This document shows, piece after piece, positions 9,387 to 35,769 of a DNA stretch of 40,812 nucleotides (positions are counted from its first letter, which is position 1; each line of letters begins with the position of its first letter). Source of the DNA: Pirellula sp. (lineage in GTDB: Bacteria > Planctomycetota > Planctomycetia > Pirellulales > Pirellulaceae); the NCBI GenBank assembly GCA_021300155.1, contig JAJTID010000029.1, positions 1 through 40,812 on the forward strand. The letters are read 5' to 3'. The position numbers were made by a program, and so were the translations under genes. The notes under the pieces are model-generated. The model had not been told where the DNA came from and did no database searches. It worked only from the letters and a program-made list of their open reading frames with translations.

Positions 9387-9396
9387 TCGCCAACCG

Positions 9397-12039: not shown

Positions 12040-12047
12040 TTAAGGCC

Positions 12048-12581: not shown

Positions 12582-12641
12582 ATTGATTACGGTGGATGTT
12601 TTTGGGCATTGACTCTCTAACAACTGACAATAGACAACGTA

Positions 12642-12708: not shown

Positions 12709-12763
12709 CAGGCTAAGGTCAAAGCGTGACTGTTGTCAGTTGTGCCTCGAGCATCGAGGCAAG

Positions 12764-15373: not shown

Positions 15374-15379
15374 GGAGGA
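15374..15379 (+). promoter_or_regulatory. Strong Shine-Dalgarno site
   Basis: GGAGGA lies 4 bases before the ATG at 15384. Such clear sites are uncommon in this window and it fixes the start of the small gene that follows. Confidence 0.7.
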
Positions 15380-15383
15380 TTCC

Positions 15384-15740
15384 ATGACCAAAAAAGATGT
15401 TTTCCGGGTTGTTACACGCGCTGAAGATGGTTCGTTGAAAATTCGCGACTTTCATTCTGCGGAACTGATCTTTCGAACGCATACTCAGATTGGTATCGAT
15501 GACAGCAGTACCGACCTGGATCTTCGCGGCATGCCTGTTTTCCGCGGCCTCATCGGGCCGATTCCCGAGGGCAAGAACATCGTGAGGTACGAGACTCCTG
15601 AAGTTTTCGAGCTGTTGACGAAAGAGTGGGCGACAAACAAACCGCGAAGACGGCGTCGATCCACAAAAGCTGTCAGCGAAGCCGCACCTGTCGTGCAAAA
15701 CGAGTGGGTATCGCCAAATCAGTCCGTAGCCAACAGCTAG
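15384..15740 (+). CDS. Small hypothetical protein, 118 residues
   Basis: The function is not recognised. The protein is soluble with no signal peptide or membrane segment. Residues 1-75 look like one compact domain (FRVVTRAEDGSLKIRDF ... LDLRGMPVFRGLIGPI). A basic patch, KPRRRRRSTK, lies near 84-93, and the tail is low-complexity, so nucleic-acid contact is possible. The start rests on the Shine-Dalgarno site at 15374. It is divergent from the beta-lactamase-fold gene and converges on the vWA gene. Confidence 0.7.
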   Translation: MTKKDVFRVVTRAEDGSLKIRDFHSAELIFRTHTQIGIDDSSTDLDLRGMPVFRGLIGPIPEGKNIVRYETPEVFELLTKEWATNKPRRRRRSTKAVSEAAPVVQNEWVSPNQSVANS

Positions 15741-15787
15741 TGCGAATGGCAGTGGTAGTTTCCATGTCCTCAACGGACTGTCGCATG

Positions 15788-20155: not shown

Positions 20156-20542
20156 CGCATTCTGTGGCAAGGAACAACCGACGGATCAAATCGACTCAAC
20201 AGTTAGAAACGTAAGAAACTGAACGAGGAGACTCCGGTCACTTCATTCTCGGAGCTATGAGAACGCTTCGACGGTCGCATGGCGATTCAAAAGATTGGCC
20301 TTGGAGATCAGTACAAAGCGCAGAATCAGCTTAACAGCGTTATCTGCTCCAAAGCTCACCGTTCGGTAGAAATACTCTTGGTCAAACGGATTACCAATGC
20401 CGAGATCTAAATTCCAAAACTAAACTGGTTTACAAGCAAACGGAGTCGGGAACAGTGAATCCAGCGGGTTGACCATTCTTTCTCACGACTGAATCCGGAT
20501 TGCTAACGCAAGTAGTTTATTCCCGTGCCAGCACGAGTCATA
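20156..20542. other. Intergenic stretch with an open minus-strand frame
   Basis: These 387 bases have no supported gene. On the minus strand 20258-20419 is open for 54 codons and reads like protein (...IGNPFDQEYFYRTVSFGADN...), but it has no start codon and both ends are closed by stops. It may be a gene relic. Confidence 0.4.
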
Positions 20543-21019
20543 ATGTATCCCGAATCTTACGGACACAACCCACACTTCCCTAAGGCATCCGACTTTAGAG
20601 TGATAAAGAATGACGCAACCTTGGGGTTCGGCGTCATCACTTATCGAGCTTTCAAACCGGGTGAATTGATTGCAGCACTTGCTGGCGAGGTAATTACACA
20701 AGTCACGCAACATAGCTTGCAGATTGAAACCGGATTGCATTTACTCGATTTGTATTTTTGCGGCTACTTCTTGCATTCATGCGATCCGAATGTCCATTTA
20801 GATCTGAATAACCGAACGGTTCATGCGATTCGTTGCATACGGCCTGGCGACTATTTATTGATGGACTATGCTCAAACCGAGGAAGTGTTGTTCAAGCAGT
20901 TTCGATGTCAGTGCGATTCCTCCAATTGTCGCGGTTGGATTACCGGGTACAAGGAACGACCGGATGAACAGTCGATCGATTATCAAAAGTATTTGATGGG
21001 GTGCGACATTGTCGAGTAG
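20543..21019 (+). CDS. Small SET-domain protein (putative lysine methyltransferase)
   Basis: The 158-residue product is a stand-alone SET domain, a SAM-dependent protein lysine methyltransferase fold. Seen: GFGVITYRAFKPGELI (about 28-43, the GxG-type SAM strand), FLHSCDPNVHLD (76-87, family NHSCxPN), AIRCIRPGDYLLMDYAQ (95-111, with the catalytic-type Tyr109), and a post-SET zinc motif CQCDSSNC (122-129). The first asparagine of NHSC is leucine here. ATG at 20543 is used; GTG at 20525 is in frame. It sits alone, about 290 bases upstream of the phosphonate genes, in the same direction. Target protein unknown. Confidence 0.8.
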   Translation: MYPESYGHNPHFPKASDFRVIKNDATLGFGVITYRAFKPGELIAALAGEVITQVTQHSLQIETGLHLLDLYFCGYFLHSCDPNVHLDLNNRTVHAIRCIRPGDYLLMDYAQTEEVLFKQFRCQCDSSNCRGWITGYKERPDEQSIDYQKYLMGCDIVE

Positions 21020-21309
21020 CTATTTATTTCTTCGTCCGGAAGTGTTCCGATCGAATGTAACCAGGAGTGTTCGAATGATCCATACAAAGAGTACAACCTA
21101 TCCAATTGTGATAGGCGTAACAATCCTCGCATTTTCAAAGGCCGATTCCGGATAAACTCATTGCGACTTGTGCGACTACAACTATCCTACGCTAACCCTT
21201 CGTCTCGAAGTGGAAACAGCATGAATTTCAAATGCTCTTGACCTGATGGCTACCATTTCCAAGTTTTGAATCACACTTTGCACTGACCGTTCCATTTTGC
21301 TGTTGGCCC

Positions 21310-22971
21310 ATGCTCGATCGACCTGTAAATTCACAACCATGTAGCTTGTTCACTAAATCGGCAAAGCTGCGCGAGATAGTCGAATCGTCGGAATTATGTT
21401 TCTTGATGGAAGCCCACAATGGACTAAGCGCGCGCATCGTCGAAGAGGCGGGGTTCGAAGCGATTTGGGCGAGCGGACTATCGATCTCGGCTTCATTGGG
21501 TTTGCGTGATTCCAACGAAGCGACTTGGACTCAAGTGCTTGAAGTTTTGGAATTCATGTCCGACGCCAGTACGATTCCAATTCTTGTTGATGGCGATACT
21601 GGCTATGGCGACTTTAACACGATGCGGCGATTGGTTAGAAAACTAGAGTCTCGAGACATTGCTGGCGTCTGCATCGAAGACAAGTGCTTCCCAAAAACGA
21701 ATAGTTTCATTCGTGGAACGAGCCAACCGCTTGCGAAGATTGATGAGTTCTGTGGAAAGATAAAGGCGGGACGCGATGCGCAACAGAACGAAAACTTTGT
21801 GATCGTTGCACGCGTAGAAGCGTTCATCGCTGGATGGGGATTGGGAGAAGCTGTCAAACGTGCCGAGGCGTATATGGAAGCGGGAGCTGACGCTATCTTG
21901 ATGCATAGTGCACTTCGTAATCCTAGTGAAATCTTTGCGTTTTTGAATGAGTGGCAAAATAGATTGCCAGTCGTACTCGTGCCAACGAAGTACTTCACGA
22001 CTCCAACCGATGAGTTTCGCAAACGCGATGTCTCTTGCGTAATATGGGCAAACCATAATCTTCGTTCTTCAATTTCTGCAATGCAGGCGACCTGCGAAAA
22101 GATCTTTCGGGAACAAAATCTCGAAAGTATAGAAGAAGTTGTTGTACCCGTATCGGAGGTGTTTCGACTTCAAGGTGAAGATGAATTAGCCGATGCCGAG
22201 AAAAAGTTTCTGCCCGCAGCTGCGTCAAATACGAGAGCATTGATTCTGGCCTATACGCGAGGCGAGGAGATGGGTGAACTTACCGTGGATCGGCCGAAAG
22301 CGATGGTTGAAATCAACGGCAAACCATTATTGAATCATATCATCGAAGCCTATCGATCTGCAGGTGTTCGTGACTTGAATGTGATTCGCGGTTATCGCGG
22401 TGAGTGCTTGGAGAACATCGGGTGTACACTTTTTAACTCAAAAACAATTGACCGTCGAAGCGAAGTTTTTGCTGTTTCCTCTGCCCTCGAAGTGCTTGAG
22501 GGCAACATGTTGATTTCCTATGGGGACGTCCTCTTCAAGAAATTCATCGTGACGCAACTTTTGGACTGCGAAGCTGATTTCGCAGTGATGATCGATACCG
22601 CATGGAGGAATAGTCGCAATAGGAATCGTTTTGCAGACTATGTCGTTTGCTCACGCGAAAGCTCACAAGTCGGGTTCTATGAAGAGGTTTTTTTGAAAAG
22701 AGTAATCAGTGACCTGGCGAATGGATCGCCCATTCATGGCGAATGGATGGGATTTCTGAAGATGTCAGCTACCGGAGCGGAGATATTGCGGAAACTGATT
22801 GTCGAAATGATCGACGAGAACAACTTCAACATGGAAGGATTCGACATGGCAGCATTGCTGAATTTGCTTGTCGAACGCGGCAACGAGATTCGCGTGATTT
22901 ACACGACAGGCAATTGGCTCGATTGCGATAGTGTCGCTGATGCGGTCGAAGGGAGCACGTTCGGACGATGA
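21310..22971 (+). CDS. aepX: PEP mutase fused to a nucleotidyltransferase
   Basis: The 553-residue fusion starts with phosphoenolpyruvate mutase (about 15-295), which makes the C-P bond of phosphonopyruvate. Signatures: [28 protein letters not shown] (52-60), DGDTGYG (94-100) and the diagnostic [10 protein letters not shown] (123-132). Residues about 309-553 are a nucleotidyltransferase of the sugar-nucleotide/LicC type: [22 protein letters not shown] (311-332), then [12 protein letters not shown]. Fused PEP mutase-PntC proteins in other bacteria make CMP-AEP, so a CTP:AEP cytidylyltransferase role is inferred. The nucleotide loop departs from the usual LAAGxGxR (Gly to Thr, Arg to Glu), so activity is not certain. 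It is the first gene of the operon and overlaps the next by ATGA. Confidence 0.93.
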
Positions 22972-24110
22972 ACGCAGATGTCTTGCTTGACGCCCTTCGC
23001 AATCATGGATTCGGTTTGATTAGCGGGGTCCCTTGTTCGTACTTGACACCATTGATCAATGCAACGATCGATTCTCCAACGACTCGTTACATCAACGCGG
23101 CAAACGAAGGGGAAGCAGTTGCCATTTGCAGCGGAGCTGAGCTCGGCGGTGTTCGTTCGGTGGCGATGTTTCAAAACTCAGGACTGGGAAATGCTGTCAG
23201 TCCGCTTACCAGTTTGAATGCGATTTTTCGTATTCCGGTGCTCTTGATTACCACGTGGCGAGGCCAACCTGGCAAGAAGCAAGACGAGCCCCAGCATTCA
23301 TTGGTCGGTCGTGTGATGCCTAAGTTGGTCGATACGATGGAGATTCCCTACGCGATGTTTCCTGCCGATCAAGCGGAGTTGGACCATGTATTGGCAAGAG
23401 CAATCAAGTCGATGGATGCGACCGGATTGCCATTTGCTTTGTTCATGGAAGACGGAACAATTGACAAACGAGAACTGCAAACGAAACCTCCAACGCGCGA
23501 CTTAAAACGCCTCGCACCACCCGAGATTCCGACGAGTACTTTGGATGTCGACGAATGTTTGGCTAGTATCGCGACGATTGCCTCGCAAGCAGAAGCGGCT
23601 GTATTGGCCACCACCGGCTTTACCGGGAGAGCCTTGTACAATGTTGGAGATCGAGCGAACCAACTTTATATGGTTGGCTCCATGGGATGTATCAGCAGTT
23701 TAGCTTTAGGTGTCGCGCTGGCCTGTCCACAACGCCATGTGATCGCGATCGACGGCGATGGTGCGTTTCTGATGCGAATGAGTGCATTGTGCGCCGTCGC
23801 GGACGCCGCCCCAAGGAATCTGACACATATTGTGCTGGACAATGGTGTTCACGATTCTACCGGCGCGCAAGCGACGCTTGCGCACAGGGTCGACATCCCG
23901 GCAGTGGCAGCGGCTTGCGGATATCCAAACGTTGAAGTTGCTGACACCGTCAAGTCATTGGAGATACTTCTACGATCAGACGCTCAATCGTTGCGACTGA
24001 TTTATGTTCGCACGCGACCGCGCGAGAATCGAGATTTGCCGCGACCGAGTATCACCCCCGAACAAGTAGCACATCGATTACGAAAATGGCTTCACGGAGA
24101 ATCAGTGTGA
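22968..24110 (+). CDS. aepY: Phosphonopyruvate decarboxylase
   Basis: The 380-residue thiamine diphosphate enzyme decarboxylates phosphonopyruvate to phosphonoacetaldehyde, pulling the unfavourable mutase reaction forward. Seen: [11 protein letters not shown] (20-30), the cofactor-activating glutamate in NEGEAVA (47-53), a pyrimidine-binding N-terminal domain, and the diphosphate/Mg motif [14 protein letters not shown] ... [10 protein letters not shown] (261-299) with Asp262 and Asn292. The length is normal. Translation is coupled to aepX by the 4-base ATGA overlap and it overlaps the transaminase gene at its end. Confidence 0.95.
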
Positions 24111-25204
24111 GTGTCCCAAATGAGCGATTTGTTTTGTTGAATCCAGGACCGGTGACATTGACCGATACCGTTCGTGATTCATTAACACAGCGAGACATGT
24201 GCCATCGTGAATCCGCATTCTCCGATTTGATGCGTGATGTTCGCGGTCAATTATGCCATATCTATGACTCGGAACAGGCCTGGACATCGGTATTACTGAC
24301 GGGTTCGGGAACGGCCGCCGTAGAGTCGATGGTCAGTTCCTTGGTTTCTGGAGAACGAACTGCGTTGGTAGCTGCAAACGGTGTGTACGGCGAACGTATT
24401 GAATCGATGTTAAAGCATGCTGGTAAATGTCCAGTGATGGTCCGTAGCGAGTGGGCCGACCCGATCGATTTTGATGCGGTGGAAGCGAAGCTCCAACAAG
24501 AGAGTTCGATTAAGCATGTGATTGCTGTGCACCATGAGACGACGACAGGACGGTTGAACGATCTGGGGCGACTAGCCGAACTATGTACTCGCTATGGCAA
24601 ACGAATGCTGATCGATGGCGTTAGCAGTTTCGGTGGCGAGAAACTGGATTTAGACCATTGGCCAATTGACGGGATCGCCGCGACCGCCAACAAGTGTCTA
24701 CACGGTATCCCCGGCATTGCATTCGTGTTGGTACCGAGAACGGTTTCAGAGAAGATGCGACCAAGCGCGTCGAGTCTCTATCTCGACTTGGCGACTAATC
24801 ATTCTGCCCAGGAAAAAGGCTACCCCGCTTTCACGCCCGCGATTCAGTCACTTTATGCGTTGAAACAAGCTCTGATTGAGCTCGAAGCGGCAGGAGGATG
24901 GCAGCAACGTCACCAGTTGTATTGCCAACGTTCAACGAAAGTCGCTGCGGCGTTAGAAGAGATCGAGATCCAACCGCTGCTAGTTAACGCAACGGATCGA
25001 TCGTCCGTACTCACTGCATATCGTTTGCCAAGGGATTGTGACTACGATTCGTTGAGCCAGCCTCTGATAGAAAACAGAATCGTGATTTACGCAGGACAGA
25101 AAGAGCTCGAGAGAATCATCTTCCGGGTTGCAGTCATGGGTGACTTGCGCGAGGACGATTTTGAGAGGTTTTTTCAAACGATCGGGGAGGCACGTAGATC
25201 ATGA
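24086..25204 (+). CDS. aepZ: 2-aminoethylphosphonate:pyruvate transaminase
   Basis: The product of about 372 residues is a PLP-dependent fold-I aminotransferase that interconverts phosphonoacetaldehyde and AEP; in this operon the direction is synthesis. Seen: LLNPGPVTLTDTVRDSL, the family RDMCHRE (37-42), TGSGTAAVESM (72-82), the PLP-binding Asp in LIDGVSSFGGEKLD, and the Schiff-base lysine in ATANKCLHGIPG (Lys203). The ATG at 24086 overlaps aepY by 25 bases; the in-frame GTG at 24107 forms a GTGA overlap and gives the N-terminal length typical for PhnW-like proteins, so it may be the real start. Confidence 0.93.
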   Translation: MASRRISVSVPNERFVLLNPGPVTLTDTVRDSLTQRDMCHRESAFSDLMRDVRGQLCHIYDSEQAWTSVLLTGSGTAAVESMVSSLVSGERTALVAANGVYGERIESMLKHAGKCPVMVRSEWADPIDFDAVEAKLQQESSIKHVIAVHHETTTGRLNDLGRLAELCTRYGKRMLIDGVSSFGGEKLDLDHWPIDGIAATANKCLHGIPGIAFVLVPRTVSEKMRPSASSLYLDLATNHSAQEKGYPAFTPAIQSLYALKQALIELEAAGGWQQRHQLYCQRSTKVAAALEEIEIQPLLVNATDRSSVLTAYRLPRDCDYDSLSQPLIENRIVIYAGQKELERIIFRVAVMGDLREDDFERFFQTIGEARRS

Positions 25205-25322
25205 ACGTGTCCAGATCCATTTTGAATATATATTTATCGTTTGTTCACGCATGTTGTCCAAGTCAGCGACGACTCCCCACTGCGTTGCATCTTTCGAGTC
25301 GCTGTCGGATGATACCCTTTCC

Positions 25323-26636
25323 ATGAGTTTGCTTAAGCACCTGCCACGTTTCAAAGCAGCGCGACGATCACAGGCGGAATTGGAAGTTCGCGAAAATTGG
25401 TCACGGGAACAGATTGCGGCATTTCAACTGCAACGTCTCAACCAACTTTGGGGAAATGCGATCGCACATACTTCCTTTTTTCGTGAGTGTGCGCGAACAC
25501 GGGGGCTGCCTGGAGAATTTTCCTCACTCAGCCACTTTCAGGCGGTTTGTCCAATTCTGAACAAGGATTTGGTTCGAACGCGTCAGAACGATTTTTTCTC
25601 TGATGTTGCGGAGAAAGGTGCATGGTACCGCTCGGGAGGTTCAACTGGTTTTCCTGCTTCGTATTTCAGATCGCACGAGGCACATCGCGAGATCCTTCGT
25701 GGACGTTATCGAGGCCATGCAAAGTGGGGTGTAGACCTCTTCGATAAGTGGGCGTTTTTGTGGGGGCATGCCGCTTCGTTCTCACCAGGGTTTGCTGGGC
25801 GAATTGAGCGAGTGAAACGACATTTAGCAGACTGGCTTCGAAATCGACTAAGGGTCTCGGCATACGACTTGTCTTCCGAGGCTTTACGTGAGTATCTAAG
25901 GCGAATCGGCGAGTTTCGCCCTGCTGCAATTTATGCTTATAGCACTGCTGCGTTTCTGCTTGCGAAAGAAGCCAAGGCCATCGGATTTCATTGTCCTTCA
26001 CTGAAAATGCTTGTCTTGACGGCCGAACCTGTTCTGCCACGCGTTGTGAAAGAGTGCGAAGAAGCCTTTGGCGTTCCAGCCCTTATCGAGTACGGTTCTG
26101 CAGAAACAAACGTTTTAGCGTTTGAGTGGCCAGATCGAACGCTCCGGGTGCGGGACGATATCTTTTTTGTCGAAACGCCACAACGAGAAGATGGTCGTTA
26201 CGATATTCTGATCACCGTACTTAATAGCCATTCGTTTCCTTTGATACGCTATGCAATTGGAGATGTTTGCGACGGACCTATCCAACGACCTGATTTTGGC
26301 TTTGCATACCTGAGCAATATCTCCGGCCGACAGCACGACGTGCTTTACGATAAGTCGGGCGGGGCAATCGTCGCTTGGTTCGAGGATCTTTTGGAACGTA
26401 ATGAAGAGATCCGTCGGTATCAGATCCACCAAATTGAAACAGGAGAACTTACTGTTTCTCTTGAGTTAACAAATGCCTTGGCCACTGCAGATCTAGATCG
26501 TATTAAAGAGGCAATGTCGAATCGGATTGGGTTCGATGTTAAGGTTCAAGTTCTCGACAAACTTCCGCTATCGCGTGCAGGTAAACATCGCGGAATCACT
26601 TCAGACTTTGTTACATCGACGAGCATACATAACTGA
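25323..26636 (+). CDS. CapK-type adenylate-forming protein, copy 1
   Basis: The 437-residue product belongs to the CapK / phenylacetate-CoA-ligase-like family found in capsule and exopolysaccharide loci. The ATP-loop SGGSTG is at 104-109, the second core motif EYGSAET at 256-262 and the hinge-region SGRQHD near 334-339; these match adenylating enzymes, though the acyl substrate of CapK proteins is not known. The start at 25323 aligns residue for residue with the paralog at 28010, so the longer frame to 25128 (inside aepZ) is rejected. The two paralogs align without gaps for about 340 residues. A gap of 118 bases separates it from aepZ. Confidence 0.85.
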   Translation: MSLLKHLPRFKAARRSQAELEVRENWSREQIAAFQLQRLNQLWGNAIAHTSFFRECARTRGLPGEFSSLSHFQAVCPILNKDLVRTRQNDFFSDVAEKGAWYRSGGSTGFPASYFRSHEAHREILRGRYRGHAKWGVDLFDKWAFLWGHAASFSPGFAGRIERVKRHLADWLRNRLRVSAYDLSSEALREYLRRIGEFRPAAIYAYSTAAFLLAKEAKAIGFHCPSLKMLVLTAEPVLPRVVKECEEAFGVPALIEYGSAETNVLAFEWPDRTLRVRDDIFFVETPQREDGRYDILITVLNSHSFPLIRYAIGDVCDGPIQRPDFGFAYLSNISGRQHDVLYDKSGGAIVAWFEDLLERNEEIRRYQIHQIETGELTVSLELTNALATADLDRIKEAMSNRIGFDVKVQVLDKLPLSRAGKHRGITSDFVTSTSIHN

Positions 26637-26704
26637 TCGGATAATTTCGACTTCGCCCCGATCAATCCACTTGATTGGTTAAAAGAATTAGAGAATCAAC
26701 AACT

Positions 26705-27838
26705 ATGCCAACCATCATTCGCAGAGCTTTTTCAACCTATCCGTTTTATGAAAGGTGGAGATACTCACGAAAAATCAATCAACTCAAGAAAGAATATCCT
26801 GCGGCCTTCAAAACGAAATTGTCTCCAGAGTTAGAACGGGAGATAACCTCCTACTGGCGTTCGTTTGGCGTAAAAGTGAATCTTGATTGGCATCGAGGTT
26901 ACATCGGCATCTGTGGTGGAGAGAATGTTCATCGATACATTCCTGAGGACATCTATTATGCGTACATTGAGCGCGCCCTGAGTCGATTGGAACTGGCAGA
27001 TGCCTACGGTGATAAAAATGAGTACGATCGAATTTTTCCTGGTGTTCGAGGGCCGATTACTCTGATCCGAAGTATTAACGGTCGATTCTACGATCGCGAA
27101 TATCGGTATCTTACGCGCAAGCGCGCGGAAGATACCATCGTCGGTTTCGAGGGTGATTTAATAGTCAAGCCATCGCTGGATAGCGGAGATGGTAAGAATG
27201 TTCGCAAACTAACCGTGGCTAAAGGGAAACTCTCGTTTGGAAACGAATCGACCAACTTTGATGAGTTAGTCAAAAACTATGGACTCGATTATCTAGTCCA
27301 ATTCGTTTTTCAGCAGCACCCATCGATGGCCGAGTTTCATCCCTCATCCGTCAACACCATTCGTTTTTACACACTGCGTTTCGATGACGAGATCAAAATC
27401 ATCTCGGCCGTTTTTCGGTCTGGGAACATGGGCCGATGTTTCGACAATCGCGGGATCCCTTGTGGTATCAGGCACGATGGAAGCCTGAATGATCATGCGG
27501 CGACAAAGTATTTCACCAAGTTTGAATCACATCCAGTGACTGGAAAAAAGTTCAAAGGTTTTGTTATTCCTGGCTGGAAAGATGCTTGCGAATTCGTCAA
27601 GCTGCTTCACCAGAACCTGCGGTATTTTGAGAGTGTCTCTTGGGACGTCACGATCAACCCGGAGTCGGAACCATGCTTGATGGAGATCAATCTCAATTTT
27701 CAAGAGATCAATTTTCATCAGGTTAACAATGGCCCGCTTTACGGCGATTTAACAGACGAAGTATTGAGCCGTGTTTTCCAACGCATTAGCCCGAAACCGT
27801 TCTGTCGCTTCTCGAATCGGCGGACCTCGGAAAAGTAA
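26705..27838 (+). CDS. Sugar-transfer-associated ATP-grasp enzyme
   Basis: The 377-residue product matches the ATP-grasp family linked to sugar-transfer loci. Seen: DLIVKPSLDSGDGKNV (nucleotide-lid lysine and glycine-rich loop), LVQFVFQQHPSMAEFHPSSVNTIRFYTL (the SVNTIR signature), and the Mg-binding PCLMEINLNFQEINFHQ near the end. ATP-grasp enzymes join a carboxylate, through an acyl phosphate, to an amine, thiol or imine. ATG at 26705 is preferred over the TTG at 26675. It lies between the two CapK copies, 68 bases after the first and 171 before the second. A role in linking an amine such as AEP to a uronic acid is inference. Confidence 0.88.
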   Translation: MPTIIRRAFSTYPFYERWRYSRKINQLKKEYPAAFKTKLSPELEREITSYWRSFGVKVNLDWHRGYIGICGGENVHRYIPEDIYYAYIERALSRLELADAYGDKNEYDRIFPGVRGPITLIRSINGRFYDREYRYLTRKRAEDTIVGFEGDLIVKPSLDSGDGKNVRKLTVAKGKLSFGNESTNFDELVKNYGLDYLVQFVFQQHPSMAEFHPSSVNTIRFYTLRFDDEIKIISAVFRSGNMGRCFDNRGIPCGIRHDGSLNDHAATKYFTKFESHPVTGKKFKGFVIPGWKDACEFVKLLHQNLRYFESVSWDVTINPESEPCLMEINLNFQEINFHQVNNGPLYGDLTDEVLSRVFQRISPKPFCRFSNRRTSEK

Positions 27839-28009
27839 ATTCGTGATGAACATGCTGATTTATTGGGCCGGTCTATAACGATCTTGTATGATCCAACTCG
27901 CAACGCCTCTACCTACAACTTTTGTTCCGAATGCTCCGACGCAAGCGAACACTGACATGAGCTGCGTTCTGGCGATGTTCGTAAACAAGCGAAACTGGGA
28001 GACTTTGGC

Positions 28010-29347
28010 ATGAACATGCTTGAGTCGTTTTCAAGATTTAGGAAGGCAAGGGCGTCGATTGGCGAACTACAAACTCGCGAAACTTGGTCTCGCGGGCAGA
28101 TCGAATCTTTTCAACTGGAGAGACTCAATAGACTTTGGTTGAATGCTTCGAAAAACACGGCCTTTCATCGCGAACTGTCGCGAACGTTTCATCTCCCTCG
28201 CGAGTTCGAATCGCTAGAGCACTTCCAAGCGGTTTATCCGATTCTTCACAAGCGAGAGGTTCGAAATCGAAAACTCGACTTCTTGTCGGATGTTGCCCGC
28301 AAGGGAGAATGGTCTCGGTCCGGCGGTTCCACTGGTACACCTACGTCATACTTTCGCTCCCATGAGTCCCATCAAGAACTGCTCCGAGGTCGCTACTGCG
28401 CACATGCGGCGTGGGGACTGGATATCTTTGATCGTTGGGGGTTTCTCTGGGGGCATGCAGCTTCGTTCCCGCCGAATTTAGGCGGATTCATTAAAAGGTG
28501 GAAGCGACCGATTCACGATCTTTTACGAAATCGTTTTCGGCTTTCCGCATATGATTTATCGTCAAAGAACATGCGTAGGAATCTCGATCTGATAGCCAAG
28601 TATCGTCCAGCCGCTATCTATGCTTACAGCACGGCCGGCTACATGCTCGCGCGGGAAGCGAAAGCGATCGGATTTCACTGTCCTTCACTCAAGTTGATGG
28701 TTCTTACGGCTGAACCGGTTCTCCCCCAGATTGTCAGTGAGTGCGAAGCAGCGTTCGGTGTCCCAGCGGTTGCGGAATATGGCTCGACAGAGACCAGCAC
28801 TCTTGCGTTTGAGCTTCCTGATCGCAAACTACGAGTGCGAGAAGACAACTTCTTCGTCGAAACTCCGTGTCGCCAAGATGGCAGATATGATATCGTCGTT
28901 ACGGTGCTCAACAGCGAAGACTTTCCCTTTATTCGTTATGCGATTGGTGATGTGACTGACTTTCCGCTTCGACGGCCCGAATTCGGGTTTGCTTATCTTG
29001 GTAATGTCGCTGGACGCCTAGACGACATCATCGTAACGCGATCAGGTAAACCCCTTTTTGCAGGTTGGTTCGAATCGGTATTGGAGCAGGATGAGTCAAT
29101 TCGTAGGTTTCGAGTCCACCAGTCGCAAGACGGAGATATAGAAGTCATGCTTGAATTAGATGACCCGAGTGTTCTTCCCTCCACCTCGCGATTCACGAAG
29201 ATTTTTTCAAAGGCAATCGGCTTTAAGGTTAGCATTTCTTTTTTTGAGGAATTACCGACGACATTGTCGGGAAAGCATTGTCGGGTTTCCTCGGACTTGG
29301 CGAAGGAAAAGGAGATGATACTTCCAACGTACCAACCATCCAAATGA
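28010..29347 (+). CDS. CapK-type adenylate-forming protein, copy 2
   Basis: The 445-residue paralog of the 25323 gene has the same motifs at the same positions: SGGSTG at 104-109, EYGSTET at 256-262, and AGRLDD near 334-339. EYGSTET is closer to the usual core motif than copy 1 (EYGSAET), and the GR-D hinge is more canonical, so copy 2 may be the more active and copy 1 the diverged one, or they act on different substrates. Its stop overlaps the flippase ATG as ATGA, which ties it to export of the product. Confidence 0.86.
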   Translation: MNMLESFSRFRKARASIGELQTRETWSRGQIESFQLERLNRLWLNASKNTAFHRELSRTFHLPREFESLEHFQAVYPILHKREVRNRKLDFLSDVARKGEWSRSGGSTGTPTSYFRSHESHQELLRGRYCAHAAWGLDIFDRWGFLWGHAASFPPNLGGFIKRWKRPIHDLLRNRFRLSAYDLSSKNMRRNLDLIAKYRPAAIYAYSTAGYMLAREAKAIGFHCPSLKLMVLTAEPVLPQIVSECEAAFGVPAVAEYGSTETSTLAFELPDRKLRVREDNFFVETPCRQDGRYDIVVTVLNSEDFPFIRYAIGDVTDFPLRRPEFGFAYLGNVAGRLDDIIVTRSGKPLFAGWFESVLEQDESIRRFRVHQSQDGDIEVMLELDDPSVLPSTSRFTKIFSKAIGFKVSISFFEELPTTLSGKHCRVSSDLAKEKEMILPTYQPSK

Positions 29348-30642
29348 AGCCATCTATCTCACAAACCAACGATTCGCGCTCTCCCCTAATTCCGAGAAAA
29401 GAATCCCTCGTCTCTAAAAGTGTTTTGTCGCTTTTGGATCAATCCATCGTGAGCGGGACGAGTTTTCTGACAACCATTATCATTGGTCGTTTCTGTGGTG
29501 CAGATGAACTTGGGAAATATGCCCTTGCGATGACCATAGTTGTTTTGGCAAGCAATCTCCAGACGGCGGTTTTCACAAGTCCTTACACGATTTATTCAAC
29601 CCGATTGACCGACTGTGAGCGTCGCGAATATGCGTGGGCCGTACTGGTACACTGTATAGGACATATGTTCATTTGGTCCTCGCTGCTGTTAGTCTTTGGA
29701 ATCGTCTCGATATGGCTGCCTGAAAATTTTCGATCTATACCCGTCGTTGGTGTGCTGGTTGTTGGGATGCCATTCTTTCTACTACGAGAAGCATTGCGAA
29801 GGTTCGCGTTCGCGCATCTCCAAGTCATGTCGGTTTTGGTTTTGGATTTTGTCATCAGTGTTGCGCAACTGAGTGGAATGATTGCTTTGATGTCGTACAA
29901 ACGACTTTCAGCAGCCAATGTCCTTTTGCTCATTGGGTTTGTTTGCATGATGACCGGCTGCCTAATGCTTGCCTCCTTTCGTATAAACTTCGCGGTAAAC
30001 TTTCGTAATGTCGTCCCCGAACTAATTCGTAGTTGGCGACTAGGAAGATGGCTTGCAGCCGTTCGATTGACTGCCATGCTACAAACCTATTCCGTACAAT
30101 GGTTGCTTGTATTTATTGTGAGTACATCGGCCTCCGGAGTCTTTTCCGCATCGACAATTGTAGTGCTATTGGCGAATCCATTTGTAATCGGGATCAGCAA
30201 TTTGCTTGAGACGAGGGCTTCGCATGCTTTCTCAACCGGTGGCATCCGCGAACTCGATTCCGTTCTATGGCAGTCGACAAAACTTCTGGGTACGTGCATG
30301 ACTTTGTTTTGCTTATTTGCGACGTTGTTTGGGGGCATGATCGTCGAGACCACGTTCCAAGGAATCGAGTACGCCCACCAAGGTACCACAGTGACCGTTT
30401 TGGCAATCGCCGCGATGATCAACGCCTGGGAGACTGGAGCGATCTTTGGATTGCGAATCCTGGAACGCCCCGACTTGAGCTTTCGTGCGAGCATTCTTTC
30501 GCTCTGTTCGACTGTAGCGATTGGCTTCGCGTTGATTCCCTGTTTGGGCACGGTGGGGGGAGCATTGGCAATACTTACAGGAGATTCCGCCGCTGCATCG
30601 ATGAGATGGTACTGTTATACGACTTTGAAAAGAGTAGCATGA
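29344..30642 (+). CDS. Polysaccharide flippase (Wzx/MATE-like)
   Basis: The 432-residue membrane protein has about twelve hydrophobic helices in the pattern of the polysaccharide-transporter superfamily. It starts after a short polar tail with SVLSLLDQSIVSGTSFLTTIIIGR, typical of the first Wzx helix, followed by CGADELGKYALAMT. Its role is to flip lipid-linked glycan units across the membrane. The ATG at 29344 overlaps the CapK copy 2 stop by 4 bases; the longer frame from a TTG at 29278 is rejected. It is the last gene of the plus-strand operon. Confidence 0.85.
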   Translation: MKPSISQTNDSRSPLIPRKESLVSKSVLSLLDQSIVSGTSFLTTIIIGRFCGADELGKYALAMTIVVLASNLQTAVFTSPYTIYSTRLTDCERREYAWAVLVHCIGHMFIWSSLLLVFGIVSIWLPENFRSIPVVGVLVVGMPFFLLREALRRFAFAHLQVMSVLVLDFVISVAQLSGMIALMSYKRLSAANVLLLIGFVCMMTGCLMLASFRINFAVNFRNVVPELIRSWRLGRWLAAVRLTAMLQTYSVQWLLVFIVSTSASGVFSASTIVVLLANPFVIGISNLLETRASHAFSTGGIRELDSVLWQSTKLLGTCMTLFCLFATLFGGMIVETTFQGIEYAHQGTTVTVLAIAAMINAWETGAIFGLRILERPDLSFRASILSLCSTVAIGFALIPCLGTVGGALAILTGDSAAASMRWYCYTTLKRVA

Positions 30643-30723
30643 GCCAGCTATAGTCACGAAAGCGTTCGCGGTATTTGGTCTTCAAGCTTCCGGTGACTTT
30701 GTTCCTTTCACCGATACAATCAA

Positions 30724-30754
30724 CTCGCAATGCTGATGCGAGCGAGAATTGCGA
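30724..30754. terminator. Possible bidirectional terminator region
   Basis: Between two convergent operons, CTCGCA (30724-30729)/TGCGAG (30737-30742) and the alternative TCGCAAT (30725-30731)/ATTGCGA (30748-30754) can form competing hairpins. No T run follows, so this is only a weak terminator candidate. Confidence 0.3.
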
Positions 30755-30791
30755 TTCGTTCATAGCATTTTGTGCCATCCTCGATTGCTAC

Positions 30792-31967
30792 TCAGCATGA
30801 ACCTGCGTTCTTGATCGCATGCTCATAAATAGCCATTAGCTGTTGGTAGCTAACTTTCGCGTTGAATCGCTTCTCGAACGCGGACCTAGCCGAATTTCTC
30901 ATTTGCGTCTCTGCAACGTGATCCAAGCCAACTACTCGCGCAGTCGCATCCGCGAGACTGTCCGAATTACCTGTTTCGAACAGGAATCCATTCTCACCGT
31001 TGTGGACTAATTCTACCATGGCGCCCAGACGACTGGCGACGACTGGTACACCGCGTGAGAAGGCCTCCGCGACGGTTCTGCCAAACGTTTCGTACCACAG
31101 GGAAGGCATAATCAGAAGTTTTGCACCGGCAATTTGTTCTTGCACTTTATCGATGCTCAATGAACCTAGAAACTCAATTGGACCGATTCCTTCGGCCAAT
31201 TTCCTTAACGACTCTTCCTCCGGTCCTTCACCAACGATTCTAAGAGGAAGATCGATCGGCCGCTCTTTCCAGGCTCGAATCACTGTTTCGACCCCTTTTT
31301 CCCTCGAAAGACGTCCGACGAACAGGGCATAGCGACCGGGCTGCGTCGATAAACCGAGGTCTGGCAACAAGAAATTGCTCCGAACAAACACCTTATCTGG
31401 CTCAAAGCCACCCTCAATATGAATCTGCCTAGAGAATTCGGTTGGGGTGAAGTAAGCATCAACGTAGCGCTTTTGTATCCTCAACAAGCGATGAGTGAAT
31501 TGCATTCCCGCAACGACGGCGGATGCAGCAATACTTCCTCGGTAACAACGATGAAGAATCCCATGCCAAGCTGCAACCGATTTCAAGCAACTGAGGCAAA
31601 CTTTATCGTCTCGGAAAAGGAATGAATTCGCACAGAAAGCACGGTAATTGCGAAGAGCCTGAACAATTGGAATCCCTCTTTGTTTGGCCGCCTTGTAGAT
31701 CGAAACGGAAATCTGCGGAAACAAATTGTTGCAGTGCAGGACATCCGGCGATACTTCATCGATTAACTTGCTGATGTCTCGACCGGTCTCGCGATTCCAA
31801 ATAGTTCGAGCGGCAATTTGAATTTGGTTACCCGTTAGCTCTGCATTACTTTTGGTGTACGTAATCACCGAATGCCCCGCTCCTCGAAGCATTTCCACGT
31901 CGGTTTCAAACGAAATGTCCTCGCCGCCACGATGGCGATAATAGTTGTGGCAATAGAGAATTCTCAT
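30792..31967 (-). CDS. GT4-family glycosyltransferase
   Basis: The 391-residue product is a GT-B fold retaining glycosyltransferase. The acceptor domain opens with RILYCHNYYRHRGGEDISFE (glycine-rich loop). The donor domain shows YALFVGRLSREKGVETVIRA, LRIVGEGPEEESLRKLA and the EX7E motif in TFGRTVAEAFSRGVPVVASRLG. It presumably adds one sugar to the lipid-linked repeat unit. The ATG at 31967 overlaps the stop of the ligase gene by ATGA (read on the minus strand), so the longer frame to 32009 is rejected. It is the only glycosyltransferase in the locus. Confidence 0.93.
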   Translation of the reverse strand: MRILYCHNYYRHRGGEDISFETDVEMLRGAGHSVITYTKSNAELTGNQIQIAARTIWNRETGRDISKLIDEVSPDVLHCNNLFPQISVSIYKAAKQRGIPIVQALRNYRAFCANSFLFRDDKVCLSCLKSVAAWHGILHRCYRGSIAASAVVAGMQFTHRLLRIQKRYVDAYFTPTEFSRQIHIEGGFEPDKVFVRSNFLLPDLGLSTQPGRYALFVGRLSREKGVETVIRAWKERPIDLPLRIVGEGPEEESLRKLAEGIGPIEFLGSLSIDKVQEQIAGAKLLIMPSLWYETFGRTVAEAFSRGVPVVASRLGAMVELVHNGENGFLFETGNSDSLADATARVVGLDHVAETQMRNSARSAFEKRFNAKVSYQQLMAIYEHAIKNAGSC

Positions 31968-33544
31968 TTCAGCCCACTTTTGTAGGTTGATGATCTCGTC
32001 GCCACCCATTTTGCGTGAGCTGAAACGAGCCCCAGAATCGCAAAAAACGCGACGACCTCAGGTCGAATAGGCCCAAGGAAGGAGACGCAACTCTGTGACC
32101 AGCCAAGAAACCAAATCACAACGACAAGGGTGAATGAGACAAAGTCGCCAATGACTTCTGGATAAAATGCTGTTTCATCGCCGCGAAAGAGCGTTGAATT
32201 CCTCAAGCTCCTGTTATCCAATTGTGAGATCTGAATTAGTGCCATTGAGACTAATGAACGAACGAGATGACTGAAACTGACAAGCAATGCCCATACGAAA
32301 ATTATGCCGCCTACTACTCCTGTGCTCACCAAAACCTGCAAACCGACATTATGCGCATCCTCCGATGTTGTTGCACCCCAAACGTTCAGCTTGCCTGTAG
32401 ATGATGTCGTAAAGTAGCCATGCCCAATCACTGGAGAGGTCTTGAACTCTTCCCAAATTAACTCCCATAATTCAGCCCGGCCAGAGACCTCGCGAAGTTG
32501 ATCGGCGGTTTGACCGCGCTGCACGTACTCAGATACATCGTTGATTCGAGAGCTAGCTAACTGGAATCCTGGATCCAGAACGACAAGCCCCATCAGCCCT
32601 ATCCCGCCTAGCAACAGAAAGGACGCTCGCATCGCTCTAGACATCAAGAAAATCAAGCAGATTATGCCCACGACACTTGCCATAGCCAGAGCTGCGCGAC
32701 TCTCTGAATAATACAGAGCCACCATGTGGATTGTCATCATGCCCAAAGCGACAGGAATATTCTCTACGACCCGCTTCAAGAACAGAACGCCGACAAATGT
32801 CAATCCTAAAGAAGACGTTGCCCCAACGGCGGTCGGGTGAAACAAACCACTACTCCCGACATCAAAGGAAATGCTGCGATTCAACCCAGACACGCTGGGA
32901 GCAAGCGTATGAGCGGTCAAGACCATGGAGCTGTAAATTGCAAACACAATATTCAATTGTTTGGCCAAGTTTTGCCAAGGAAATGATCGTGTTTGGGAAT
33001 AGCGATCAGAAATGACTTGTGCAAACGATAGAACGCCTACTAAACCAAGCCACTGACCCAACGAAACTGTAAATCGAGGCGACCATAACACTGTCACCAA
33101 CGACCATGCAGCAAAACACCACCATGGCGCGAGTATGCGGTCAGTCCATCGACCTCGCCATGCAAAGTCTCCCACGATGTCCGCGATAGGCCGATTCAGC
33201 CGCTTTGCTCGGGTGGATAACGAGGAGAAACAAGTCAAAAGTAATATGGAGCCGAACCAAGCGATGACTAAAAAACGGATGGAGAGTTTAATGAGTGCAA
33301 TCAAATCAAGACCGCTAGAACCGTCTGGACTTTGGCGTTCAGGCAATGAGAAGCTAATCAGCGACATTAAAGCGGCTGCGACAAGGACATCCCAACGGCG
33401 GGCAACCTCCATCGCATACACGACTGCGCCACCGAACCGAAATGAAAGTAGCCATTCGACGGTCGAAGAGAATTTCTCCCGCGACAGAATCTCCTCACGC
33501 GTGCGTCTCAACGGCCCACTCCACGTCAGATCCGCCGACGTCAA
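31964..33544 (-). CDS. O-antigen ligase/polymerase-family membrane protein
   Basis: The product of about 526 residues has roughly eleven to twelve hydrophobic helices and a long periplasmic loop. This loop region carries GLFHPTAVGATSSLGL and, further on, RAELWELIWEEFKTSPVIGHGYFT with the conserved DAHN (EDAHNVGLQVLVSTG), the signature of the WaaL/Wzy family. It either polymerises repeat units or ligates the glycan to its acceptor. The start is uncertain: TTG at 33544 is the first usable codon after an upstream stop at 33554; ATG at 33412 would remove 44 residues but keep the first helix. Confidence 0.85.
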   Translation of the reverse strand: MTSADLTWSGPLRRTREEILSREKFSSTVEWLLSFRFGGAVVYAMEVARRWDVLVAAALMSLISFSLPERQSPDGSSGLDLIALIKLSIRFLVIAWFGSILLLTCFSSLSTRAKRLNRPIADIVGDFAWRGRWTDRILAPWWCFAAWSLVTVLWSPRFTVSLGQWLGLVGVLSFAQVISDRYSQTRSFPWQNLAKQLNIVFAIYSSMVLTAHTLAPSVSGLNRSISFDVGSSGLFHPTAVGATSSLGLTFVGVLFLKRVVENIPVALGMMTIHMVALYYSESRAALAMASVVGIICLIFLMSRAMRASFLLLGGIGLMGLVVLDPGFQLASSRINDVSEYVQRGQTADQLREVSGRAELWELIWEEFKTSPVIGHGYFTTSSTGKLNVWGATTSEDAHNVGLQVLVSTGVVGGIIFVWALLVSFSHLVRSLVSMALIQISQLDNRSLRNSTLFRGDETAFYPEVIGDFVSFTLVVVIWFLGWSQSCVSFLGPIRPEVVAFFAILGLVSAHAKWVATRSSTYKSGLK

Positions 33545-33666
33545 ATCCAGAGATCAAACGGGACGTCAAAACTTTACCTGCACAAAACAAACACTTATTC
33601 ATCACCGCAAAAACACTTGACTGCAATGACTGTCTCCGCGCGGAAACTCTGCTTTTCGTAGTAGTT

Positions 33667-35202
33667 CTAAGCGTGCTCGTGCTCGTCATCCCACTCTCCC
33701 GAATCAAACGGCCAATGGAACAAACCCGCTCCCGATCCATCGTCTTCTTCTTGATCTTCGCCGGAGACGAGCGCGGAAAATCTCCTCGCTTCCCGCCAAA
33801 CTGCAACACCGACCGACGACATCAACGCCCCCATCAGTCCAATCATAGCGCACAACATTTTGTTTGGAGACACAGGACGATGCTCGAGACTTGCTGCCTG
33901 AAACACGTTGACGTTACTGATGTTGCGAGACTCTAGTTCGCTGGCGAGTCGAGCTTGCTCGCGATTCTGCACATGCAGTCGGTATTGCGATTCAAGAATA
34001 TCGACCGATCGCTGCAGCTTGGCAATTTCATTCTCGTGTTGGTTGAGAAGTTTTGATCGTTCAAGCAATTGATCTAGTTCTGCTTTGGTCGCGGTCAACT
34101 TTGCCTTCATCGAATCGAAATTGGCTTTTTCTAATGCAATCTGCTGTTCCAGGGCCGCGTAAGTGGAACTAATTCCTTCCGTCACTTTCTCACTTTGTGT
34201 CTTTTGCAGACCAAACAACTCTCTTGCCTCCTCGAGTTGCCTGCTAGCTGTAACACGCCTGGGGTGGTTTTCCGTGTAGGTTGTCGCGATATGCTTATGA
34301 TCGATTTCAAGTTGGTACAGACGATCCCTCATGCGATCCTGTGCCTCATTGCTATCCACTTTGTCTTTGCCGACAGTCATGGTTGGATTTGTTGAATTCA
34401 ATTGCTCTTTAAGCGAGAAAAGCCTAGCCTCCGAGGACTTCAGCAAAGTCTCCGATTCTGTCAAGCTATTTCGAACCCAGCGAACCTGGGACTCCAATGT
34501 TTCTTGCTCTCCGCTAACCGTAACAATCCCAAACTTTGACTTCGCGTCTTGAAGTAGCGTTCGAGATCTGTCCAACGCTTCCGCTAGTTCAGACTCTAAT
34601 TCCACAAAAAACTTCAACGAGCCTTGGGTCGCATTGATATTGGCATGATGGGACCTATACAAGTCAACCCAAGCCTGAGTAACACGTTGAGCCATCTCGG
34701 GTGTCTTGGTCGTGTATGAGACGTCTACAACGCTGGAGTCCTTGCCCGCTTTGATAACCAAGTCCTTTTTCAAAGCAAGAATAGCGCGTTCCCGATCATC
34801 GATAGGATCCAACTGTTCAATCCATGCATTTGGAATACTCTTTAATCGACTAAATAGCCCAGCCGGTTTGTCACTGGATGTTATGGAACCTCGAAGAATT
34901 GCAGCCAAACCAACTTCATCAACCACTTTCTCCAAAATTTCCCGGCTCGACATCGTATTGAGTGCGGTATTGATTTCGCCTTCATATGTGCGATGGAGCG
35001 AAATCAGATCGCCTGTGGTTGTCACCGTCGGATCGACCGAGACATTTTCCCGCCCAAGCTTTAGTAGCAGTTTCGCATGCGATCCATACTTTCGCGGCGC
35101 AAAGATGATCACAAGAACGGTTAAAGCGACCCCAAGGGTAAAGACAGCCCCGATGACAATTGCTTGTCGCCGAAGTACCTGGAATATCGTTAAGTCAAAC
35201 AT
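33667..35202 (-). CDS. Wzz/GumC-type polysaccharide copolymerase
   Basis: The 511-residue product sets glycan chain length. It has an N-terminal helix (about 10-35, IVIGAVFTLGVALTVLVIIF), a large coiled-coil periplasmic region (about 150-430), and a C-terminal helix with the proline motif RPVSPNK just before it. There is no C-terminal Walker-A tyrosine-kinase domain, so any kinase is encoded elsewhere. ATG at 35202 is preferred to GTG at 35223. It is the first gene of the minus-strand operon; a 122-base gap precedes the ligase gene. Confidence 0.9.
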   Translation of the reverse strand: MFDLTIFQVLRRQAIVIGAVFTLGVALTVLVIIFAPRKYGSHAKLLLKLGRENVSVDPTVTTTGDLISLHRTYEGEINTALNTMSSREILEKVVDEVGLAAILRGSITSSDKPAGLFSRLKSIPNAWIEQLDPIDDRERAILALKKDLVIKAGKDSSVVDVSYTTKTPEMAQRVTQAWVDLYRSHHANINATQGSLKFFVELESELAEALDRSRTLLQDAKSKFGIVTVSGEQETLESQVRWVRNSLTESETLLKSSEARLFSLKEQLNSTNPTMTVGKDKVDSNEAQDRMRDRLYQLEIDHKHIATTYTENHPRRVTASRQLEEARELFGLQKTQSEKVTEGISSTYAALEQQIALEKANFDSMKAKLTATKAELDQLLERSKLLNQHENEIAKLQRSVDILESQYRLHVQNREQARLASELESRNISNVNVFQAASLEHRPVSPNKMLCAMIGLMGALMSSVGVAVWREARRFSALVSGEDQEEDDGSGAGLFHWPFDSGEWDDEHEHA

Positions 35203-35769
35203 TTCGTCAACCAAATAGGTCACGGAGTCGCCATAAGGAACTCAGTCTACTCGCATGCTCTGCCATATCAAGCATTTGGCTAATGTCGAGTTCTTGTCAA
35301 CGAAAAGCGAGTCCTACGGCCCCTACAATCGTCATTTGGCACTCGACACCCAACCGGAAGAGGAAACCAAGCAATCCCCTTGATTTCTACAGCCCCTACA
35401 ATCGTCCTTTGGCACTCGACACCTACCTGATGCTATTCCAACTTCCATTCGGTTCTGTGGGGAAAAAACGTTTCATTAATATTGACAGTGAGTCGAAACC
35501 GCAATTCAACGATCTGCAGGCGCTAAAACTGAATGACTCCAACCGAGCTTGATCAAAGAAGCCAAAGACTGGCCGATGCCATGGGCTTCAATGAAGTGCC
35601 GAGAGTAAAGCTTGGCCTCTAGATCGGGGAAACGGGTAAGCTGGCCCTTAACTCTCACGATAGGCTTCGGGTTCATCCACTATTTGAAGCAAGACTTTTT
35701 ACCTGAACGTCTGCGATAGCGACAATGGGCTTTCGGTTTGCCACAAACAGTTTTCGATTCCGAACCAAC
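35203..35769. other. Long intergenic region upstream of the Wzz operon
   Basis: About 570 bases with no supported gene. It holds a two-copy 36-bp direct repeat and presumably the promoter of the minus-strand polysaccharide operon. The part at 35530-35769 shows nothing clear. Confidence 0.5.
35315..35423. repeat. Two-copy 36-bp direct repeat
   Basis: Copy 1 at 35315-35350 and copy 2 at 35388-35423 share 34 of 36 bases (core CCCCTACAATCGTC then TTTGGCACTCGACACC); weaker likeness continues a few bases beyond each end. The 37-base spacing is CRISPR-like, but there are only two copies and no cas genes. The site lies 110-220 bases upstream of the copolymerase ATG, so a paired operator is possible. 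Confidence 0.6.

What the first reader, a model, noticed from the sequence alone, without database searches (positions are those of the whole stretch)
20543..35202. Phosphonate-linked exopolysaccharide locus in a planctomycete
Seen: PEP mutase/nucleotidyltransferase, phosphonopyruvate decarboxylase and AEP transaminase in one operon with CapK, ATP-grasp and flippase genes, facing a Wzz-ligase-GT4 operon. Known: these three enzymes turn PEP into 2-aminoethylphosphonate. Inferred: the strain decorates an exported glycan with AEP. Only one glycosyltransferase, no initiating transferase, no Wza export pore and no LicD are present, so the locus needs partners elsewhere.
Basis: partly seen in the sequence, partly recalled or inferred. 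Interest (0 to 1): 0.85.

Follow-up and report, generated by a model that had tools for sequence, protein, structure and literature searches.

The report
Phosphonate genes joined to polysaccharide genes
A probable planctomycete carries genes for making 2-aminoethylphosphonate in line with genes for a surface sugar polymer, but the usual tools for activating and attaching that phosphonate look damaged or missing, so it probably coats a glycan by a route still to be found.

Summary
The genes are as described: PEP mutase with a fused nucleotidyltransferase (NTase) domain, phosphonopyruvate decarboxylase, AEP transaminase, two CapK-like enzymes (not one), an ATP-grasp enzyme and a flippase-like protein, facing Wzz-Wzy-GT4. 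Elsewhere in the genome: two initiating transferases and Wza-type domains in two places; LicD has no match.

Phosphonate-glycan loci are a known kind. Two results go further. (1) The fused NTase domain lacks the GXGXR signature (window: TRGEE) in 12 of 12 fusions examined. All 11 relatives have a separate NTase with the signature, adjacent or two genes away; the window has none, and the genome's only free LicC-type enzyme found lies in a phosphoramidate-type cluster. (2) G064, of the same family, has CapK and flippase facing Wzy-Wzz, with GT4 nearby, and no AEP genes: the AEP module looks added to an older cassette.

Most likely AEP decorates an exported glycan; its activation and attachment are open (weak fused domain, borrowed NTase, or amide bond through its amine). 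New variant of a known kind.

The parts
21310..22971 (+). aepX/pepM: PEP mutase (residues about 15-302) fused to a degenerate LicC/PntC-type NTase domain (about 306-553; TRGEE in place of GXG(T/S)R, PK and GD kept)
22968..24110 (+). aepY/ppd: phosphonopyruvate decarboxylase; 4-nt overlap with pepM
   Evidence: TIGR03297 over cut-off
24086..25204 (+). aepZ/phnW-like AEP transaminase
   Evidence: TIGR03301 347.9 bits, cut-off 360.8
25323..26636 (+). CapK1: PaaK-like adenylate-forming enzyme (ORF open from TTG 25128; ATG 25323 chosen by alignment with CapK2)
26675..27838 (+). PF14397 'sugar-transfer associated' ATP-grasp enzyme (alternative ATG 26705)
28010..29347 (+). CapK2: PaaK-like adenylate-forming enzyme, about 60% identical to CapK1
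29344..30642 (+). flippase-like membrane protein (no family hit; 8 hydrophobic stretches; 32% homologue in the same place in G064); its ATG overlaps the capK2 stop
30792..32009 (-). GT4 glycosyltransferase (probable ATG at 31967)
31964..33544 (-). Wzy_C / O-antigen-ligase-type polymerase
33667..35223 (-). Wzz/GNVR chain-length protein (alternative ATG 35202)

Best explanation
The locus makes 2-aminoethylphosphonate (AEP) from PEP (PEP mutase, phosphonopyruvate decarboxylase, transaminase: by family and motif) and supplies it to a Wzx/Wzy-type surface polysaccharide whose modifying enzymes, flippase-like protein, polymerase, chain-length protein and one glycosyltransferase lie in the same 14 kb (shown by sequence); initiation and outer-membrane export are supplied from other contigs (genes shown, link inferred). 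AEP is attached to a sugar before export (inferred). The module was probably added to a cassette that exists without it in a family member. The activation step is not the textbook one: the PepM-fused NTase belongs to a clade that has lost the GXGXR signature and normally has a separate NTase with the signature beside it, which is missing here.
For: AEP trio by family models and motif. Same-strand order with overlaps or short gaps and no terminator-like site on the + strand between those genes (that scan finds fewer sites than shuffled sequence, so it says little). Wzz, Wzy and GT4 convergent. G064 has CapK 43%, flippase 32%, facing Wzy 35% and Wzz 34%, with GT4 43% further on, an initiating transferase and WecG, and no PepM match. 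PF02397 and Wza-type genes in the genome. In 10 family genomes a stand-alone PepM sits in polysaccharide-type loci (by eye), so the linkage recurs. Lipid route disfavoured: one CDP-alcohol phosphotransferase in the genome; no HpnL-like or CDP-alcohol gene matched in the window.
Against: Adjacency is not attachment. No LicD in the genome, no dedicated canonical PntC found. The AEP-CapK-ATP-grasp order was not seen in any other neighbourhood read. In Prochlorococcus, phosphonate was found in the protein, not the polysaccharide fraction despite capsule-like neighbours (PMC8931226, passages). The closest relatives of the fused enzyme outside the family sit with a CDP-alcohol phosphotransferase and, in the two annotated loci with long flanks, hopanoid genes, which suggests lipids.
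Confidence: 0.6

Rival explanations
1. Ordinary Pnt logic (a sub-case of the glycan reading): the fused NTase domain, though degenerate, or the LicC-type NTase on contig C252, still makes CMP-AEP, and an unrecognised transferase moves phosphono-AEP onto a sugar hydroxyl.
For: The window's fused domain keeps PK, GD and the C-terminal W motif and passes the Pfam NTP_transf_3 cut-off (29.3 against 27 bits). C252 has an intact GQGTR enzyme. [quoted passage not shown] abstract, sections 6, 7 and 9 read).
Against: Arg15Ala of Tde-PntC leaves under 10% activity; the window has Glu at the aligned position. C252 lies in a phosphoramidate-type cluster. No LicD.
Confidence: 0.35
2. AEP goes to a membrane lipid, as the proteobacterial relatives of the fused enzyme suggest.
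For: In Roseomonas, Mycetohabitans rhizoxinica, Burkholderia cenocepacia and Cupriavidus the fused pepM lies near a CDP-alcohol phosphotransferase and an HpnL-like protein, and in the two annotated loci with long flanks near hopanoid genes.
Against: No such gene matched in the window; one CDP-alcohol phosphotransferase in the genome, PgsA-like by eye. The neighbours are polysaccharide genes.
Confidence: 0.12
3. The glycan ends on a protein: the Wzy_C protein acts as a PglL-type oligosaccharyltransferase and the product is a phosphonoglycoprotein, as proposed for Prochlorococcus and SAR11.
For: Wzy_C domain in the locus; precedent in PMC8931226 (passages).
Against: A Wzz/GNVR gene lies directly upstream in the same direction, which fits a polymerase.
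Confidence: 0.1
4. AEP is a free pool or a small-molecule building block and the polysaccharide genes are chance neighbours.
For: The cassette exists without AEP genes in G064, and a 118-nt gap separates AepZ from CapK1.
Against: Same-strand run; PepM recurs in polysaccharide-type loci of the family.
Confidence: 0.08

Closest known systems
Pnt (phosphonyl tailoring) loci of T. denticola, O. uli and A. rimae (Rice et al. 2019, PMC6697681; abstract, sections 6, 7, 9 and passages read)
   Same: AEP synthesis beside surface-glycan genes; the three clusters shown there carry a Ppm-fused NTase and another one or two genes away.
   Different: Here no second NTase lies in the locus, the fused one lacks GXGXR, and no LicD was found in the genome. 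Whether the fused domains of those three keep the signature was not examined.
AEP clusters of Burkholderia, Mycetohabitans, Roseomonas that look phosphonolipid/hopanoid-linked
   Same: Closest relatives of the fused enzyme in the plasmid records (about 48-49% identical); pepM-ppd in line, with the transaminase close by in those read with annotation.
   Different: They hold a separate NTase with GXGXR; a CDP-alcohol phosphotransferase was matched in the long-flank loci and hopanoid genes in two; the window has polysaccharide genes instead.
G064 CapK cassette (same family)
   Same: CapK and flippase facing Wzy-Wzz; a GT4 homologue nearby.
   Different: No AEP genes; a CPSase-type ATP-grasp in place of PF14397; single CapK; GT4 in another place and direction; own initiating transferase, epimerase and WecG.
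Prochlorococcus SB/SAR11 phosphonate clusters (PMC8931226, passages read)
   Same: pepM near flippase and PglL-type genes.
   Different: Phosphonate was recovered in the protein fraction of Prochlorococcus SB.

Membership tests
AEP biosynthesis pathway | PEP mutase with EDKX5NS | tested here: met
   [14 protein letters not shown]02320 over cut-off
AEP biosynthesis pathway | Phosphonopyruvate decarboxylase | tested here: met
   TIGR03297 375 bits, cut-off 312.5
AEP biosynthesis pathway | AEP transaminase | tested here: inconclusive
   TIGR03301 347.9 bits, cut-off 360.8; best solved matches are AEP transaminases
PntC (active AEP cytidylyltransferase) | GXG(T/S)R pyrophosphate site with Arg | tested here: not met
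   Window TRGEE; 0 of 12 fused domains have GXGXR, 13 of 13 separate NTases compared do
PntC (active AEP cytidylyltransferase) | Lys of the PK motif | tested here: met
   12 of 12 fused domains keep PK
PntC (active AEP cytidylyltransferase) | NTP_transf_3 (PF12804) family score | tested here: met
   29.3 bits, cut-off 27
Pnt/Lic pathway with LicD transferase | LicD (PF04991) in the genome | tested here: not met
   0 matches at E 0.001; the same search rings in 2 of 14 controls
Wzx/Wzy-type polysaccharide locus | Wzy and Wzz | tested here: met
   PF04932 66.4 bits (cut-off 31.7), PF02706 27.8 bits (cut-off 25.5)
Wzx/Wzy-type polysaccharide locus | Wzx flippase | tested here: inconclusive
   No family hit; 8 hydrophobic stretches and a syntenic homologue
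Wzx/Wzy-type polysaccharide locus | Initiating transferase and Wza | tested here: inconclusive
   Not in the window; PF02397 at 2 places and PF02563 in 2 places elsewhere in the genome; their link to this locus not tested
AEP-lipid cluster | Dedicated CDP-alcohol phosphotransferase | tested here: not met
   None matched in the window; 1 in the genome, PgsA-like by eye
Phosphonoglycan producer | C-P bond in surface glycan by 31P NMR | not testable with these tools
   needs culture

The most novel reading that the evidence does not exclude
AEP is never CMP-activated here: it is joined through its amine, as an amide, to a carboxylate (for example a uronic acid) of the growing glycan by the locus's ATP-grasp or CapK enzymes, giving a glycan with a free, phosphatase-proof phosphonate. 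The PepM-fused NTase is then a pseudo-enzyme kept for another task. Precedent for the chemistry: Campylobacter Cj1438C uses ATP to amidate glucuronate with ethanolamine phosphate, the phosphate analogue of AEP (PMC12096443 and PMC12409886, passages; the passages do not say which fold Cj1438C has).
Probability: 0.15. Interest if true: 0.75.

Novelty: new variant of a known kind. Interest (0 to 1): 0.55.

Why it matters
Phosphonates on surface glycans are thought to protect cells from enzymes, grazers and phages (PMC8931226, passages). Rice 2019 counts PepM-fused NTase domains as evidence for CMP activation (33% of 1485 PEP mutases carry PF12804). Here 12 of 12 fusions examined, all of one clade, lack the pattern that a characterised PntC needs, and the window is the only one of them without a signature-bearing neighbour. 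That makes a simple test possible: does this fused domain work at all, and if not, how is AEP attached? An amide link would be a new way to build a phosphonoglycan.

Tried and rejected
Considered and rejected: that the CapK pair is AEP-specific (CapK-like proteins match in 178 of 248 class genomes, own included; G064 has CapK without AEP genes). That the C252 NTase is simply the missing PntC: it sits with PRK05849, gamma-glutamyl-CDP-amidate-hydrolase-like, APS-kinase-like and methyltransferase genes, so a phosphoramidate role is likelier, though sharing is not excluded. That base composition marks an island: G+C of the locus in 2-kb steps (0.46-0.51) is like the rest of the contig (0.48-0.52).

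Led nowhere: folding the ATP-grasp alone gave mean pLDDT 33, so no fold search was run. PDB search of the ATP-grasp gave one chance-like hit. The flippase query found 5 weak plasmid matches. The PepM-domain tree does not resolve the window's place. Paper searches for CapK with ATP-grasp and for the PF14397 name found 0 papers each; one search listed 10 of 187 papers, none of which holds the word aminoethylphosphonate. Rfam and tandem-repeat scans of the window: 0 hits.
Full report
What is there. The window is one whole contig, C43, of a 6.46 Mb genome in 260 contigs. On the + strand: PEP mutase with a fused NTase domain (21310-22971), phosphonopyruvate decarboxylase (22968-24110), AEP transaminase (24086-25204), CapK1 (about 25323-26636), PF14397 ATP-grasp (26675-27838), CapK2 (28010-29347) and a flippase-like membrane protein (29344-30642). 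On the - strand: Wzz/GNVR (35223-33667), Wzy_C (33544-31964) and GT4 (32009-30792). PEP mutase and decarboxylase pass their curated cut-offs; the transaminase falls just short (347.9 against 360.8 bits), but its best solved matches are AEP transaminases. The PEP mutase motif is [10 protein letters not shown]. Gaps on the + strand are -4, -25, 118, 68, 171 and -4 nt. No terminator-like site on that strand lies between these genes, but the scan found 12 sites where shuffled sequence gives 17.7, so it says little. A single transcript is possible, not shown.

Partners. The 35 window ORFs scanned with Pfam hold one glycosyltransferase and no initiating transferase, Wza or LicD. In the genome, PF02397 matches at two places (C71, C69), Poly_export at two (C171, where two stretches match, and C33), and LicD at none (2 of 14 control genomes ring). 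PEP mutase (PF13714) matches only here. One CDP-alcohol phosphotransferase was found, PgsA-like by eye.

The cassette is probably older than the AEP genes. A genome of the same family, G064, has CapK (43%), a CPSase-type ATP-grasp and a flippase-like protein (32%), facing Wzy (35%) and Wzz (34%); behind Wzz lie an initiating transferase and an epimerase on the same strand, and beyond them, on the other strand, GT4 (43%) and WecG. It has no PEP mutase at E 1e-40, and none of the AEP trio matches in the 38 kb read. So CapK, flippase, Wzy, Wzz and GT4 do not depend on AEP. The window adds the AEP trio, a second CapK (about 60% identical to the first) and a different ATP-grasp family. A PF14397 relative (41%) was found in 1 of the other 59 relatives searched (G033), on a 10 kb contig among polysaccharide-type genes by eye. 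None of the 26 same-genus genomes matched the ATP-grasp. For Wzy, 24 same-genus genomes were searched and three gave weak partial matches (25-27%). All PEP-mutase matches of the family search other than the window's own lie outside the genus.

Other AEP trios in the class. Of 397 class genomes, own included, 6 match TIGR02320 at E 1e-40 and 4 pass the cut-off. The three others over the cut-off (G363, G375, G165) hold PEP mutase (33-34%), decarboxylase (33-34%) and transaminase (30-31%) together, with no CapK, ATP-grasp, Wzy, Wzz or flippase match in the stretches read. So the AEP-glycan arrangement of the window is not the rule for AEP genes in the class.

The fused NTase domain. Rice et al. 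2019 (PMC6697681; abstract, sections 6, 7 and 9, and passages read) give the signature GXG(T/S)RX4-8PK and report that Ala at Arg15, Lys25 or Lys153 of Tde-PntC leaves under 10% activity. The window's domain passes the Pfam NTP_transf_3 cut-off (29.3 against 27 bits) but reads [18 protein letters not shown] compared it with 11 fused relatives: 9 of the 15 fused plasmid records (4 Burkholderia, 3 of 9 Mycetohabitans, Roseomonas, Cupriavidus), the one genome-contig hit that covers both domains (a Caulobacteraceae MAG), and G474 of the same family. None of the 12 has GXGXR; all keep PK and a GD motif. The remaining 6 plasmid records, all Mycetohabitans, were not examined. All 11 relatives have a separate NTase with GXGXR and PK: next to pepM in ten, two genes away in G474, where it is fused to a transaminase. 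With one of Rhizobium and the genome's own C252 enzyme, 13 of 13 separate NTases compared have both. In a tree of the 25 NTase domains the fused ones form one clade (99/97) with the window inside it; the program warns of long branches, among them the window and C252, and of odd composition in those two rows. The loss is therefore probably ancestral, with an active partner kept elsewhere and missing here. The samples are related, so 12 of 12 is not twelve independent events. Two loci in the set were too GC-rich for clean ORF calls; their separate NTases were placed by tblastn.

No replacement found. A separate partner (that of Mycetohabitans) used as query found in the own genome only the C252 NTase and the fused domain itself. 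The nine NTP_transf_3 places read by eye as MobA, GlmU, C252, mannose-1-phosphate guanylyltransferase, RmlA, the fused domain, two GlgC-like proteins and a degenerate one (names recalled). NTases outside that family were not searched. The C252 enzyme sits in a cluster with PRK05849 (941.5 bits, cut-off 501), an APS-kinase-like protein (NF004041 159.4 bits, cut-off 127), a gamma-glutamyl-CDP-amidate-hydrolase-like protein (109.5 bits, below its 250 cut-off) and a methyltransferase, which looks like the O-methyl phosphoramidate pathway of Campylobacter (gene correspondence recalled).

Where AEP goes. For a glycan: the neighbours, and the recurrence of PEP mutase in polysaccharide-type loci of the family. 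Of 241 family genomes, 18, own included, have a PEP-mutase-like match at E 1e-30. One other, G474, has the fusion; its contig is 5.3 kb and shows no polysaccharide gene. Ten have a stand-alone enzyme 55-60% identical to the window's, with EDKLFPKTNS, next to a 2-hydroxyacid dehydrogenase in 10 of 10 loci and, in the longer stretches, among glycosyltransferase-like and flippase-like genes by eye. The neighbourhoods of five weaker matches (G453, G476, G480, G513, G566) were not read. For a lipid: the proteobacterial relatives' neighbourhoods, whose CDP-alcohol and HpnL genes have no match in the window. For a protein: the Prochlorococcus case (PMC8931226, passages), but Wzz here suggests polymerisation.

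Mechanism. Shown by sequence: the enzymes for PEP to AEP. Inferred: attachment to a glycan before export. Open: the attachment chemistry. Either the fused domain or the C252 NTase makes CMP-AEP and an unknown transferase uses it, or AEP is joined by its amine. The second has a chemical precedent: Cj1438C of Campylobacter uses ATP to amidate glucuronate with ethanolamine phosphate (PMC12096443, PMC12409886; passages). Both CapK proteins keep the phosphate-binding SGGSTG.P, RYAIGD and GR motifs of adenylate-forming enzymes (motif roles recalled); CapK1 lacks the strict YG.TE form found in CapK2. Against the amide: CapK-type enzymes are common without AEP (178 of 248 genomes), G033's ATP-grasp is not beside AEP genes on its contig, and nothing here shows the substrates of either enzyme.

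Literature limits. Ten searches showed me no paper on an AEP-glycan locus in planctomycetes or on loss of the signature in PepM-fused NTases. The library holds open-licence papers only, and for two searches I saw a part of the list (20 of 70 papers, 10 of 187). PMC9381506 (passages) names planctomycetes for phosphonate catabolism genes; its tables of pepM carriers were not seen.

Noticed in passing
L070 (G000:C252:10000-29999), 7790-15882, minus strand: Same genome: a cluster that looks like an O-methyl phosphoramidate pathway (PRK05849 PEP-synthase-like, gamma-glutamyl-CDP-amidate-hydrolase-like, LicC-type NTase, APS-kinase-like, methyltransferase, GT4, sulfotransferase-like). Two rare phosphorus decorations in one organism.
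   Followed up: partly
L115-L124 (G475, G507, G488, G489, G481, G490, G492, G493, G487, G482): Ten family genomes have a stand-alone PEP mutase beside a D-2-hydroxyacid dehydrogenase (10 of 10 loci), with a FemAB-like match in 7 of 10, in polysaccharide-type loci, and no decarboxylase or AEP transaminase match in the stretches read (3 to 20 kb): perhaps a phosphonolactate-type decoration.
   Followed up: partly
L114 (G474:C366, 5.3 kb): Same-family fused PEP mutase, decarboxylase, methyltransferase and an NTase-transaminase fusion (signature intact) in one run, cut by the contig end.
   Followed up: partly
window 20525-21019: A SET-domain protein (PF00856, 28.7 bits, cut-off 22.4) lies 290 nt upstream of pepM on the same strand.
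   Followed up: no
window 12764-15391: One protein joins a squalene-hopene-cyclase-type region to a beta-lactamase-family domain.
   Followed up: no
window 248-3346: NosD/beta-helix protein with a dockerin type I domain.
   Followed up: no
L074 (G000:C33:31000-50999) 11619-14453: A 944-residue Wzy_C protein about 1.1 kb from a Poly_export (Wza-type) gene and divergent from it, with one ORF between: a second polysaccharide locus that could share export with this one.
   Followed up: no
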